Assembly (NCBI RefSeq): GCF_002300165.1
Contig: NZ_MLCE01000008.1
Coordinates: 93,032-157,031, forward strand
DNA: 64,000 nt
Reading direction: 5' to 3'
Source: Streptomyces sp. Tue6028
GTDB lineage: Bacteria > Actinomycetota > Actinomycetes > Streptomycetales > Streptomycetaceae
The position numbers and the translations under genes are program-made. The notes beneath the pieces were generated by a model that worked only from the letters and a program-made list of their open reading frames with translations, was not told the origin of the DNA and did not search any database. Positions 26,338-29,602 of the stretch are shown one piece after another (position 1 is the stretch's first letter; every line of letters starts with the position of its first letter).

Positions 26338-27063
26338 ATGGATGCCGCGGCCCTGGTGCGTGACCACACGATCTACTCCTGCGTGATGGGTTCACGCGCC
26401 TTCGGGCTGGCCACCGACACCAGCGACACCGACCGCCGGGGCGTGTTCCTCGTCCCCACTCCGCTCTTCTGGCGCTTCGAGAAGCCGCCGACGCATGTGG
26501 AGGGCCCGGCCGAGGAACAGTTCAGCTGGGAGCTGGAGCGGTTCTGCACCCTGGCGCTGCGCGCCAACCCGAACGTCCTGGAGTGCCTGCACTCCCCGCT
26601 CGTCGAGTACGCGGACGCCACCGGCCGCGAGCTGCTCTCCCTGCGCGAGGCCTTCCTGTCCCGTCAGGCGCACGAGACGTTCGCGCGCTACGCCATGGGG
26701 CAGCGCAAGAAGCTCGACGCCGACGTCCGCAGGCACGGCGCCCCGCGCTGGAAGCACGCCATGCACCTGCTGCGCCTCCTCACGACGTGCCGCGATCTCC
26801 TGCGCACCGGCGAGCTCCGGATCGACGTGGGCGAGCAGCGTGAGCCGCTCCTCGCGGTGAAGCGGGGCGAGGTCCCGTGGGAACGGGTGGAGGCCTGGAT
26901 GTCCCGGCTGGCGGCGGAAACGGACGAGGCGGCCGCGGGAAGTCCCCTCCCGTACGAGCCGGACCGGGCCCGCGTGGAGGACTTCCTGGTCCGGGTGCGC
27001 CGCGCCTCAGCCCTCCAGGCGGACCCGGACGACGAAATCGTGCAGGGCGTCGTGGGCGGTTGA
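26338..27063 (+). CDS. COG3541/RlaP-type nucleotidyltransferase
   Basis: A 241-residue Pol-beta-fold nucleotidyltransferase. The active-site pattern is GSRAFGLATDTSDTDRRG (about 18-35), with the G-S and two metal-binding aspartates. Then comes NPNVLECLHSPLV, shared with the convergent paralogue at 27007. Substrates are unknown; the family is predicted to modify nucleic acids or proteins. ATG 26338 has TACGCT 6 nt upstream and only an over-close AGGA, so a leaderless mRNA is likely. The 3' end overlaps the convergent paralogue by 57 bp. Confidence 0.82.
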   Translation: MDAAALVRDHTIYSCVMGSRAFGLATDTSDTDRRGVFLVPTPLFWRFEKPPTHVEGPAEEQFSWELERFCTLALRANPNVLECLHSPLVEYADATGRELLSLREAFLSRQAHETFARYAMGQRKKLDADVRRHGAPRWKHAMHLLRLLTTCRDLLRTGELRIDVGEQREPLLAVKRGEVPWERVEAWMSRLAAETDEAAAGSPLPYEPDRARVEDFLVRVRRASALQADPDDEIVQGVVGG

Positions 27064-27759
27064 GGCGTCGGGCAGCGCCGAGGCGTCCTGGGCCTCGTCC
27101 AGCAGGGTGTGCAACCGCTCCACGTCGTCCCGCACCCGCGCGCGGTCGACGTCGGCCGCGCCGTGCTCCCGCTCCGCCTTCGCGGCGATCAGGTCGGGCA
27201 GCCGGGCGGGGGCCTCGGCCACGCACCCGACGAGCGTGGGCAGATGGGCCTGCACCTCACCGCTGCGCATCAGATGGACGCCGGTGAGCAGCACACGGAA
27301 CGTGTAGAGCAGCGGCTTGAGTTCGCCGGTCCGCTCGAACAGCCGCCACTGCGTGGCGGCGAAGCCCCGGTAGTGGTGGGCGTGATGGCGGGTGAGCACG
27401 GCGGGGGCGAGCGAGACCAGCTCGCGGTGCGCCTCGGTGGTGTGCACGACCAGGGGGGACAGGAGCTGCTCCAGCACATAGCCGTTGCGCCGCAACATCA
27501 GCCGGACGAACTTGCGCAGGTCGTGGGTGACGAGGTCCATCTCGACACCGTCCTCGAACCACATGCGCGACCGGGTCTCCTCCGGTTCGCGCAGGCCGAC
27601 GAGTTCGGCGGCGGGCAGCAGGTGGACGCCTCGCAGGTCGACGTCGGAGTCGCGCGAGGGGAAGCCGTAGAGGTGGGCTCCGGAGACCGTGGCGAAGAGC
27701 ACCGGGTCGGGCTGCTGCGCCACCACGGCCTTGAGGTCGATGTCGAGGACGTCCGTCAT
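27007..27759 (-). CDS. COG3541/RlaP-type nucleotidyltransferase
   Basis: A 250-residue paralogue of the 26338 protein. The catalytic stretch is TVSGAHLYGFPSRDSDVDLRG (from about 25), with aspartates D39 and D41. NGYVLEQLLSPLV matches the neighbour, and a helical C-terminus ends in DFVVRVRLEG. It starts 3 nt after the ADP-ribosylglycohydrolase stop, so it is the last gene of an nrtR-led operon. The substrate is unknown. The link with ADP-ribose removal and an NAD/ADP-ribose sensor suggests nucleotide-modification chemistry, which is inference. Confidence 0.82.
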   Translation of the reverse strand: MTDVLDIDLKAVVAQQPDPVLFATVSGAHLYGFPSRDSDVDLRGVHLLPAAELVGLREPEETRSRMWFEDGVEMDLVTHDLRKFVRLMLRRNGYVLEQLLSPLVVHTTEAHRELVSLAPAVLTRHHAHHYRGFAATQWRLFERTGELKPLLYTFRVLLTGVHLMRSGEVQAHLPTLVGCVAEAPARLPDLIAAKAEREHGAADVDRARVRDDVERLHTLLDEAQDASALPDASTAHDALHDFVVRVRLEG

Positions 27760-27762
27760 CCG

Positions 27763-28785
27763 TCAAGCGTCCCAGAGCGCCCCCAGCGACATGAGGTCGC
27801 CCTGGTACTCGATCCGGTCGGCCCAGGCCGTCGGCCAGGCGTCCGAACCGTGGTAGGCGCCGGCGAAGGCGCCCGTCAGGCAGGCGATGGAGTCGGAGTC
27901 GCCCGAGGTGCAGGCGGCCCGGCGCAGCGCGGTGAGGGGCTCGTCGACGAAGAGCAGGAAGCACAGCAGGCCGGTGGCGAGGGCCTCCTCGGCGATCCAG
28001 CCGCCGCCGGTGGCCATGCAGGGGTCGCTCTCGGGCGAGACGGTCCGCACGGCGTGCCGCAGCTGGTCCAGGGCGGCGAGGCACTCGTCCCAGCCTCGGG
28101 TGATGTACGCCTCGGGCGTGGGGTCCTCGCTGTAGGTCCACAGGTCGCCGAGCCAGCGGGAGTGGTAGCGGTGGCGGTTCTCGTACGCGTACGACCGCAG
28201 CCGGCCGACGAGGCCCATCGGCTCGACGCCCTGGGTGAGGAGCCAGATCGCCTGCGCGGTGAGGTCCGCGGCGGCGAGGGCGGTGGGGTGTCCGTGGGTG
28301 AGCGCGGCCTGGAGCTGCGCGGCACCGGCGCGCTGTTCGTCGCTGAGTCCGCGGACCAGTCCGACGGGAGCCACGCGCATGTTGGCGCCGCAGCCCTTGG
28401 AGCCGATCTGGCTGGCCTCCTGCCAGCGGCGCTTCTCGTTCTTGAGGAGGTTGCAGGCGACGAGGCAGGTGCGGCCGGGCGCGCGGTTGTTGTCGGGCGA
28501 CTGGTACCAGTCCACGAACTCCTCGCGGACCGGCCGTTCCATCCGCAGCGGGCCGAGCAGTCCGCGGTCCATGGCCGTGCGCAGCCCCCGCGCCAGCGCC
28601 AGCGTCATCTGGGTGTCGTCGGTGACCTTCGCGGGCGTGGGCAGCGCCATCTGCCGCCAGGGCCCGCACTTGTCGAGGATCGCGGGGACGGAGTTGAACT
28701 CGGTCGGGTACCCGAGCGCGTCGCCGAGGGCGAGGCCGATGAGAGATCCGGTGGCGGCGCGCTTGGCGAGAGTCGTGGCGGTCAT
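27763..28785 (-). CDS. ADP-ribosylglycohydrolase family protein
   Basis: A 340-residue DraG/ARH-type hydrolase. GSLIGLALGDALGYPTEF opens the fold (13-30). T55-D56-D57-T58 in VTDDTQM and G295-D296-S297-D298-S299 supply the two-magnesium site. Family members cleave ADP-ribose from proteins or release free ADP-ribose. The ATG overlaps the nrtR stop as TGATG, and the nucleotidyltransferase gene begins 3 nt after its stop, showing one transcript. The target here (Arg-, Ser- or nucleic-acid-linked ADP-ribose) cannot be told. Confidence 0.9.
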   Translation of the reverse strand: MTATTLAKRAATGSLIGLALGDALGYPTEFNSVPAILDKCGPWRQMALPTPAKVTDDTQMTLALARGLRTAMDRGLLGPLRMERPVREEFVDWYQSPDNNRAPGRTCLVACNLLKNEKRRWQEASQIGSKGCGANMRVAPVGLVRGLSDEQRAGAAQLQAALTHGHPTALAAADLTAQAIWLLTQGVEPMGLVGRLRSYAYENRHRYHSRWLGDLWTYSEDPTPEAYITRGWDECLAALDQLRHAVRTVSPESDPCMATGGGWIAEEALATGLLCFLLFVDEPLTALRRAACTSGDSDSIACLTGAFAGAYHGSDAWPTAWADRIEYQGDLMSLGALWDA

Positions 28786-29540
28786 CAGGGCCGTCCTTCC
28801 GAACTGGGACGCAGCAGGGGCGGGTGCAGGGCTTTGGCGTCGCCCGCGCGGTAGAGCGCGGCGGGCTTGCCGCGGCCGCCGGTGAGGCGCGCGGCGCCGG
28901 GGACCTGCTCGACGAATCCGGGCGTGGCGAGGACCTTGCGCCGGAAGTTGGGCCGGTCGAGGGCGGTGCCCCACACGGTCTCGTAGACCTGCTGCAGCTC
29001 GCCGAGGGTGAAGCGGGGCGGGCAGAAGGACGTCGCGAGACAGGTGTACTCGAGCTTGGCGCCGACGCGTTCGTGGGCGTCCGCGAGGATCCGGTCGTGG
29101 TCGAAGGCGAGCGGGCCCAGCGCGTTGAACCGCAGCCACTGGGCCTGTGCGGCGTCGCCGCCGCCGCGCGGCTCGGGAGGGTCCGGGAGCAGCGCGGCGA
29201 AGGCGACGGAGACGACGCGCATCCTGGGGTCGCGGTCGGGCTCGCTGTAGGTGCGCAGCTGCTCCAGGTGGAGTCCGGAGAGGTCCGACAGGCCGGTCTC
29301 CTCGGCGAGTTCGCGGCGGGCCGCCGCCTCCGCCGACTCGTGCGGCAGCACGAAGCCGCCGGGCAGTGCCCAGCGGCCCGCGTAGGGTTCCTGGCCGCGC
29401 TCGACGAGCAGCACCTGGAGCGCGCCGGCACGAACCGTCAGGACGGCCAGGTCGACGGTGACGGCGAAGGGTTCGAACGCGTACTTGTCGTAGCCCTCCG
29501 GTGCTGTGCCGCCCGGCGCACGGCTCTCCTTCCCGCGCAC
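28785..29540 (-). CDS. nrtR: NrtR-type regulator: Nudix domain plus winged helix
   Basis: A 251-residue protein. Residues 20-165 form a Nudix domain with a complete box (G62-x5-E68-x7-R76-E77-L-x-E80-E81-x-G83). Residues about 165-240 form the winged-helix DNA-binding part (FTLGELQQVYETVWG, DRPNFRRKVLA). NrtR proteins repress NAD-metabolism genes and are released by ADP-ribose or related nucleotides. Many have lost the catalytic Nudix residues; here they are intact, so hydrolysis may also occur. GTG 29540 has AGGAGG at 7 nt. A tandem palindrome at 29569-29602 is the probable operator. Confidence 0.88.
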   Translation of the reverse strand: MRGKESRAPGGTAPEGYDKYAFEPFAVTVDLAVLTVRAGALQVLLVERGQEPYAGRWALPGGFVLPHESAEAAARRELAEETGLSDLSGLHLEQLRTYSEPDRDPRMRVVSVAFAALLPDPPEPRGGGDAAQAQWLRFNALGPLAFDHDRILADAHERVGAKLEYTCLATSFCPPRFTLGELQQVYETVWGTALDRPNFRRKVLATPGFVEQVPGAARLTGGRGKPAALYRAGDAKALHPPLLRPSSEGRP

Positions 29541-29568
29541 GCCCCCACCTCCTGCTCACCGCCATTTT

Positions 29569-29602
29569 TATGGTCACTCTGACTATGGTCAGTACGACTA
29601 TA
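29569..29602. promoter_or_regulatory. Tandem NrtR operator candidate
   Basis: Two overlapping imperfect palindromes stand 15 bp apart: TATGGTCA-N3-TGACTATG (29569-29587) and TATGGTCA-N3-CGACTATA (29584-29602). They lie 28-62 bp before the nrtR start and contain TATAGT, CATAGT and CATAAA boxes on the minus strand, so binding would cover the promoter. The layout fits autoregulation of the nrtR operon. Confidence 0.7.

What the first reader, a model, noticed from the sequence alone, without database searches (positions are those of the whole stretch)
26338..29602. NrtR-controlled ADP-ribosylglycohydrolase/nucleotidyltransferase module
The genes nrtR, ADP-ribosylglycohydrolase and a COG3541 nucleotidyltransferase overlap or abut (TGATG; 3 nt), so they form one transcript from a tandem palindrome. 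A second nucleotidyltransferase of the same family converges on them. NrtR senses ADP-ribose-type ligands, the hydrolase releases ADP-ribose, and the transferases have polymerase-beta motifs. Together this looks like a regulated cycle that adds or removes nucleotide groups on RNA, DNA or protein. I know of no described function for this combination.
Basis: partly seen in the sequence, partly recalled or inferred. Interest (0 to 1): 0.72.

Follow-up and report, generated by a model that had tools for sequence, protein, structure and literature searches.

The report
ADP-ribose operon with paired nucleotidyltransferases
In many Streptomyces, genes for a predicted ADP-ribose-sensing repressor, a predicted ADP-ribose-removing enzyme and one of two paired nucleotidyltransferases overlap or abut behind a conserved predicted operator, which would let an NAD breakdown signal switch on what is likely RNA-end repair.

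Summary
In detail: nrtR, an ADP-ribosylglycohydrolase gene (ARG) and RlaP-family nucleotidyltransferase B overlap or abut behind a tandem palindrome, and paralogue A converges on B. The four-gene set was found only in Streptomyces: 21 of 61 genomes of the genus sample have all four side by side. Two separable units are joined. One is an NrtR-type NAD-salvage operon: of 38 Streptomyces loci with nrtR beside ARG, 20 also have pnuC-nadR in front and 36 have the operator. The other is an A-B pair: in a scan ranked by similarity to a Microbispora B, 66 of 80 loci (79 not Streptomyces) have A directly upstream of B, and 0 of 80 show ARG, NrtR, NadR or PnuC. Of 10 genomes with intact ARG but no nrtR beside it, 7 keep an operator-like site. 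Catalytic motifs are intact in the window genes. Most likely reading: ADP-ribose relieves repression, ARG strips ADP-ribose from targets, and B with A rebuilds RNA ends; the last step is inferred from family. An obligate four-gene cycle is not supported, because each unit persists without the other. New variant of a known kind.

The parts
29569..29602 (.). predicted NrtR operator: two overlapping 19-bp palindromes (29569-29587, 29584-29602)
   Evidence: only two sites at <=2 mismatches in the held genome; conserved upstream of the operon in relatives
28785..29540 (-). nrtR: Nudix domain plus NrtR winged helix; canonical Nudix box GX5EX7REUXEEXGU intact
27763..28785 (-). ADP-ribosylglycohydrolase (ARG); TDDT and GDSDS motifs present
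27007..27759 (-). RlaP-family nucleotidyltransferase B; acid triad DxD + D
26338..27063 (+). RlaP-family nucleotidyltransferase A; acid triad DxD + E; convergent on B with 57-nt 3' overlap; no operator of this type in front of it

Best explanation
This is a Streptomyces-specific joining of a predicted NrtR-repressed NAD/ADP-ribose operon with one member (B) of a separable pair of RlaP nucleotidyltransferases that likely repair RNA ends. Steps: (1) NrtR would bind the tandem operator and repress nrtR-ARG-B (operator and gene order shown; binding inferred). (2) ADP-ribose, made when NAD is consumed, would release NrtR (reported for MsNrtR; inferred here). (3) ARG would remove ADP-ribose from modified protein or nucleic-acid ends, feeding the inducer; the intact Nudix box suggests that NrtR may also destroy it and so reset the switch (inferred). 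(4) More B would work with A, which has no such operator, as a two-protein template-independent nucleotidyltransferase that restores nucleotides on damaged RNA before ligation (inferred). In relatives the same operator also stands before nicotinamide-riboside uptake and use genes (pnuC-nadR); the window strain lacks those two genes at the locus.
For: Operator (up to 3 mismatches) upstream of the first gene in 36 of 38 Streptomyces loci with nrtR beside ARG; pnuC-nadR behind it in 20 of the 38, one (G025) with only a PnuC fragment (labels checked on L065 by Pfam). Motif 57 sites vs 0 for the reversed control. Of 10 genomes with an intact ARG but no nrtR beside it, 7 keep an operator-like site before ARG; in G221 a second genome-wide match lies before a PnuC-family gene followed by a NadR-like frame. 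ARG-to-B gap median 4 nt in 33 loci, nrtR-to-ARG median -4 nt in 55 (starts extrapolated from alignments). Motifs: Nudix box in 39 of 39 NrtR rows, DDTQMT plus GDSDS in 47 of 50 ARG rows (each set holds one duplicate of the window's gene), A DxD in 59 of 59 and its Glu in 57, B DxD in 37 of 38 and its third Asp in 37. A and B both reach outside the genus: A clade 95/94, B clade 100/99 support; A directly upstream of B (up to 122 nt) in 66 of 80 scan loci. Full-length B without A in 0 of 61 Streptomyces genomes, A without full B in 19. RlaP is predicted to restore nucleotides before RNA ligation (PMC7824862, passage). The own genome has a KptA and an RNA ligase. MsNrtR is released from DNA by ADP-ribose (PMC6800001, passages).
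Against: No RNA ligase lies by the locus; the nearest PF09414 hit that is not a DNA ligase is about 103 kb away on the same contig. 0 of 80 B loci from the scan show ARG, NrtR, NadR or PnuC, so the A-B function does not need ADP-ribose control. B is absent or broken in 19 of 49 genomes with A. One Streptomyces genome of the class sample (G351) has B with no A on the remaining 1.9 kb of contig, and 9 of 80 scan loci show no A (two of these have B near a contig end). G017 keeps an operator-like site but no NrtR was found. G009, G014 and G026 have ARG with neither nrtR nor operator at the locus. The best structural match, HalB, makes a nucleotide signal, and the next ones for B modify small molecules.
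Confidence: 0.5

Rival explanations
1. A-B make a nucleotide signal or modify a small molecule rather than repair RNA: the RlaP pair works like Hailong HalB (oligodeoxyadenylate) or like aminoglycoside nucleotidyltransferases, and in Streptomyces B's dose is tied to ADP-ribose.
Against: Identity to HalB 9-12%; a shared fold shows no function. Only six window genes were run against Pfam and none is an effector; neighbours were not searched for HalA. Viral predicted structures match with higher TM-scores (up to 0.80) and include phage nucleotidyltransferases, one named RNA repair pathway protein.
Confidence: 0.2
2. ARG-NrtR is a defence or stress module that removes ADP-ribose put on host molecules by phage or toxin enzymes, as predicted for ARG-centred systems with Nudix regulators (PMC9503650); the nucleotidyltransferases are variable add-ons.
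For: ARG plus a Nudix-type repressor is the described template (PMC9503650 section 3.8 read). A and B vary between genomes while nrtR-ARG stays.
Against: In the loci read, the same chromosomal surroundings recur (Rieske-like gene; other flanking genes, by my reading of translations), and pnuC-nadR in the operon points to housekeeping NAD salvage. PADLOC gave no hit for A, B or ARG and a weak one for nrtR.
Confidence: 0.2
3. The nucleotidyltransferases are passive neighbours: synteny in Streptomyces put B behind ARG without any shared function; the operon is ordinary NAD salvage.
For: 0 of 80 scan loci with B show ARG or NrtR. nrtR-ARG stands without A or B in G013 and G032 and in five of ten further Streptomyces loci (L236, L237, L239, L240, L241). 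B is broken in place in at least five genomes.
Against: ARG-B gaps are 3-6 nt in 19 of 33 loci and a full-length B stands next to ARG in 26 of 50 ARG genomes, as for a co-transcribed gene under selection. ARG and A co-occur (45 of 50 genomes with ARG against 4 of 11 without; p 4e-4, not corrected for relatedness).
Confidence: 0.25

Closest known systems
NrtR regulons of NAD metabolism (e.g. M. smegmatis MsNrtR)
   Same: Nudix plus winged helix; own-operon palindrome; next to NAD genes in many relatives (pnuC-nadR)
   Different: Different operator (GTTTTCGA-N7-TCGAAAAC in mycobacteria); Nudix box intact here, changed at three residues and inactive in MsNrtR; predicted targets include ARG and RlaP B
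ARG-centred systems with Nudix or WYL regulators (PMC9503650 section 3.8)
   Same: ARG gene with a Nudix one-component repressor
   Different: That section names phosphatases, chaperones, Macro/NADAR and REases as partners, not RlaP or NAD salvage; here RlaP B/A and, in relatives, pnuC-nadR
RlaP (PF10127) in phage and counter-RNase repair systems; COG3541 member T4 nrdC.11
   Same: Family by profile, acid triad
   Different: Here two diverged RlaP paralogues form a pair, no RNA ligase is adjacent, and one stands behind an NrtR-type operator
Hailong HalB (PDB 9dbh)
   Same: Closest solved fold for both A and B
   Different: About 12% identity; partner not searched; product of A and B unknown

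Membership tests
NrtR | Nudix domain plus NrtR winged-helix domain | tested here: met
   NUDIX 1.2e-22, NrtR_WHD 1.6e-15, both over cut-off
NrtR | palindromic operator in front of its own operon | tested here: met
   by sequence only
NrtR | ADP-ribose releases it from DNA | not testable with these tools
   needs a binding assay
NCBIfam equivalog NF050029 (ADPR-responsive repressor) | curated cut-off | tested here: not met
   130.5 bits against 400; so a member by domains, not filed as that equivalog
ADP-ribosylglycohydrolase (PF03747) | family profile and both metal motifs | tested here: met
   221 bits vs 26.2; TDDT and GDSDS in the window protein; DDTQMT plus GDSDS in 47 of 50 relatives' rows
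DraG or Tri1 equivalogs | NCBIfam cut-offs | tested here: not met
   71 vs 337 and 69 vs 490 bits
RlaP (PF10127) | family profile with pol-beta acid triad | tested here: met
   115 and 185 bits vs 23; DxD plus E (A) or D (B)
RlaP-RNA ligase repair cassettes | RlaP gene beside an RNA ligase gene | tested here: not met
   nearest PF09414 hit about 103 kb away; not filed as such a cassette
ARG-centred conflict systems (PMC9503650) | ARG with Nudix regulator | tested here: met
ARG-centred conflict systems (PMC9503650) | phosphatase, chaperone or nuclease partners; no linked ADP-ribosyltransferase | tested here: inconclusive
   neighbours were not profiled systematically
Hailong | HalA channel partner | not tested
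   no HalA search was run

The most novel reading that the evidence does not exclude
ADP-ribose-gated RNA repair: a two-protein RlaP enzyme (A outside the switch, B inducible) is turned on by an NAD breakdown product through an NrtR that both senses and hydrolyses the signal, coupling NAD loss to RNA-end restoration. B, never found without A in 61 Streptomyces genomes, depends on A.
Probability: 0.2. Interest if true: 0.75.

Novelty: new variant of a known kind. Interest (0 to 1): 0.48.

Why it matters
RlaP nucleotidyltransferases occur in bacteria and phages, and in the papers seen their role is a prediction. A conserved NrtR-type operator in front of one, and a recurrent paralogue partner, give a concrete inducer and a concrete protein pair to test. 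If true, it would tie NAD consumption to nucleotide transfer on RNA in a well-studied group of soil bacteria.

Tried and rejected
Rejected: an obligate four-gene cycle (units separate). Rejected: a wider regulon of this operator type in the own genome; beyond the two sites only background-level matches. A pair of variant sites before an arginine deiminase gene in G000 (one reported in G040) may be chance and was not pursued. PnuC elsewhere in the genome: the only PF04973 hit lies among riboflavin genes and reads as RibM (label mine). A NadR search of the own genome was not run. Outside Streptomyces, the four genomes of 296 with a distant relative of this ARG (53-58% identity) show no NrtR, RlaP, PnuC or NadR match in the fetched 14-15 kb. 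By sequence, B has no convincing PDB relative (A was not searched). PADLOC gave nothing for A, B or ARG. The second RNA-ligase-family hit (C34) is a DNA ligase by Pfam.

Print status: searches listed no paper that I recognised as describing this gene combination; the listings were capped, only open-licence papers are held, and most listed papers were not opened. The 2008 NrtR paper, the 2016 RNA-damage paper and the Hailong paper were not held, so the first may already list a Streptomyces pnuC-nadR-nrtR regulon.

Corrected on recheck: ARG motif counts, the list of nrtR-ARG loci without A or B, and the labels PnuC, NadR, arginine deiminase, KptA and DNA ligase, which now rest.
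Full report
What is there. The window lies in a Streptomyces-like genome (closest named relative of A: Streptomyces sp. 142MFCol3.1, 98% identity). Four genes were confirmed at the stated coordinates: A (26338-27063 +) and B (27007-27759 -), both RlaP/PF10127; ARG (27763-28785 -), PF03747; and nrtR (28785-29540 -), Nudix plus NrtR winged helix. nrtR and ARG share one base, ARG and B are 3 nt apart, and A and B overlap by 57 nt at their 3' ends. The operator is two overlapping 19-bp palindromes at 29569-29602. 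In the held genome no other place matches TATAGTCN5GACTATA with 2 or fewer mismatches; at up to 3 mismatches there are 7 sites against 13 for the reversed control, so such hits are background.

Conservation in Streptomyces. In a sample of 61 genomes of the genus (the own one included), RlaP proteins occur in 54 and this ARG in 50, two of them partial (G051, G060). I fetched the neighbourhoods of all 50 (plus the window) and read them with tblastn. My tally: nrtR beside ARG in 38 of 50; pnuC-nadR in front of nrtR in 20 of these 38 (one, G025, with only a PnuC fragment); A beside ARG, with or without B between, in 42 of 50 (split in G028); a full-length B between ARG and A in 26 of 50; all four together in 21 of 61. 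PnuC and NadR were first named from their translations; Pfam agrees for the copies used as queries (NMN_transporter; AAA_28 plus a weak cytidylyltransferase-like match). By score class (classes mine), full-length B is in 30 of 61 genomes and A in 49. Every genome with B has A, 19 have A without a full B, and 12 have neither (Fisher p 1.3e-4, not corrected for relatedness). In at least five of the 19, remnants of B remain in place (G007, G012, G029, G046, G049). Further Streptomyces from the class sample show the same kinds of arrangement. Results against: G351 has B but no A on the remaining 1.9 kb of contig; L238 and L242 have broken A; five of the ten Streptomyces loci (L236, L237, L239, L240, L241) have nrtR-ARG without A or B, and L233-L235 have ARG without nrtR.

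The operator. In 36 of the 38 loci with nrtR, a match with up to 3 mismatches lies upstream of the first gene, whether that is pnuC or nrtR; the two others are a contig end (G028) and G059. Over 80 Streptomyces loci (1.16 Mb, window not included, some without ARG) there are 57 sites at up to 2 mismatches in 55 loci; the reversed pattern has none. Thirty shuffled palindromes tested on 20 of those loci average 0.03 sites, against 9 observed. Among 10 genomes with an intact ARG but no nrtR beside it, 7 keep an operator-like site directly before ARG, in several as a variant, TTATCGTCA-N3-TGACAATAA; G009, G014 and G026 show none. A search for this variant in 8 genomes gave matches in 7 and none for the control. 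The nine sites: five at ARG; one before a PnuC-family gene with a NadR-like frame behind it in G221; two before an arginine deiminase gene (G000, G040); one before an unidentified frame in G020. An NrtR paralogue, about 60% identical, occurs in most of the 24 genomes tested; 23 of 24 have some NrtR match. It is the likely trans regulator where the local nrtR is missing. G017 speaks against this: it has an operator-like site, but no NrtR was found in its fragmented assembly.

The nucleotidyltransferase pair is separable from the operon. A tree of 121 RlaP rows places A (59 rows, support 95/94) and B (38 rows plus two duplicates, 100/99) as two clades that both contain Streptomyces and members of family f17; the tool warns that long branches meet. 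In 66 of 80, A lies directly upstream of B on the same strand (up to 122 nt between alignments); 71 of 80 have A in the locus; 9 do not, two of them with B near a contig end. In 0 of 80 does tblastn (E up to 1e-4, Streptomyces queries) show ARG, NrtR, NadR or PnuC within the locus, up to 7 kb each side; 13 of the 80 loci are shortened by contig ends. So the pair is a unit in its own right; its link to ARG and NrtR was seen only in Streptomyces, where A converges on B. In the class sample this ARG (E up to 1e-30) is found in 29 of 296 genomes, 25 of them Streptomyces, and the other four show no NrtR, RlaP, PnuC or NadR nearby.

Active sites. A: GS and DxD in 59 of 59 rows, and a Glu where B has the third Asp in 57 of 59. 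B: DxD in 37 of 38 and DLVTHD in 37 of 38. ARG: DDTQMT plus GDSDS in 47 of 50. NrtR: canonical Nudix box in 39 of 39. The ARG and NrtR sets each hold one duplicate of the window's gene. The M. smegmatis NrtR has three changes in that box and no detectable hydrolase activity, yet is released from DNA by ADP-ribose (PMC6800001, passages). So this NrtR may be both sensor and hydrolase; that is a prediction.

Mechanism. I commit to an ADP-ribose-responsive operon: NrtR represses nrtR-ARG-B, ADP-ribose relieves repression, ARG removes ADP-ribose from modified molecules, and B joins A to add nucleotides to damaged RNA ends. Shown: gene order, operator conservation, intact motifs, the A-B pairing, the pnuC-nadR link in relatives. 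Inferred: DNA binding, the inducer, ARG's substrate, and the reaction of A and B. Support for RNA is by family: RlaP is predicted to restore nucleotides before ligation (PMC7824862, passage) and is said to occur across counter-RNase repair systems (PMC6514570, passage); T4 nrdC.11 orthologues match COG3541 (PMC1524935, passage). KptA-type enzymes can ADP-ribosylate RNA ends, and RNA ADP-ribosylation is reversible by ARH3 among others (PMC8883491, passages). The own genome has a KptA and an RNA ligase, both far from the locus.

Against known systems. PMC9503650 (section 3.8 read) predicts a defence role for ARG genes with Nudix or WYL regulators and names phosphatases, chaperones, Macro/NADAR domains and nucleases as partners; that section does not mention RlaP or pnuC-nadR. 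The case here is a variant: NAD-salvage context in relatives, RlaP pair, intact Nudix box. Eight searches of the paper library listed no description of the combination that I recognised, but the 2008 NrtR paper was not held and may list part of it.

Verdict. A real, conserved regulon, seen as a whole only in Streptomyces, with a testable inducer and an unusual nucleotidyltransferase pair; not an obligate four-gene cycle. Interest 0.48; new variant of a known kind.

Noticed in passing
own genome G000:C25:22839-22892 (L120, L129): Two variant NrtR-like sites 34 bp apart before an arginine deiminase gene (Pfam ADI); one such site is reported before the like gene in G040 (L131). May be chance or a second NrtR's regulon.
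   Followed up: partly
own genome G000:C22:195486-196250 + (L072): A second NrtR (Nudix plus NrtR_WHD; about 60% identity) with an intact Nudix box, beside a glycogen-debranching-like frame and an ABC transporter (my reading).
   Followed up: partly
G013, G017, G026, G032: A third, divergent class of RlaP protein (58-70 bits, matching profile positions 19-169) in Streptomyces genomes that lack A and B.
   Followed up: no
own genome G000:C37:16146-16697 and C14:30460-30954: An RNA ligase-family gene (same contig as the window, outside it) and a KptA/Tpt1 gene.
   Followed up: partly
own genome G000:C35:96533-97069 (L124): The only PnuC-family hit sits among riboflavin genes and reads as the riboflavin transporter RibM (label mine); pnuC-nadR salvage seems absent at the usual locus.
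   Followed up: partly
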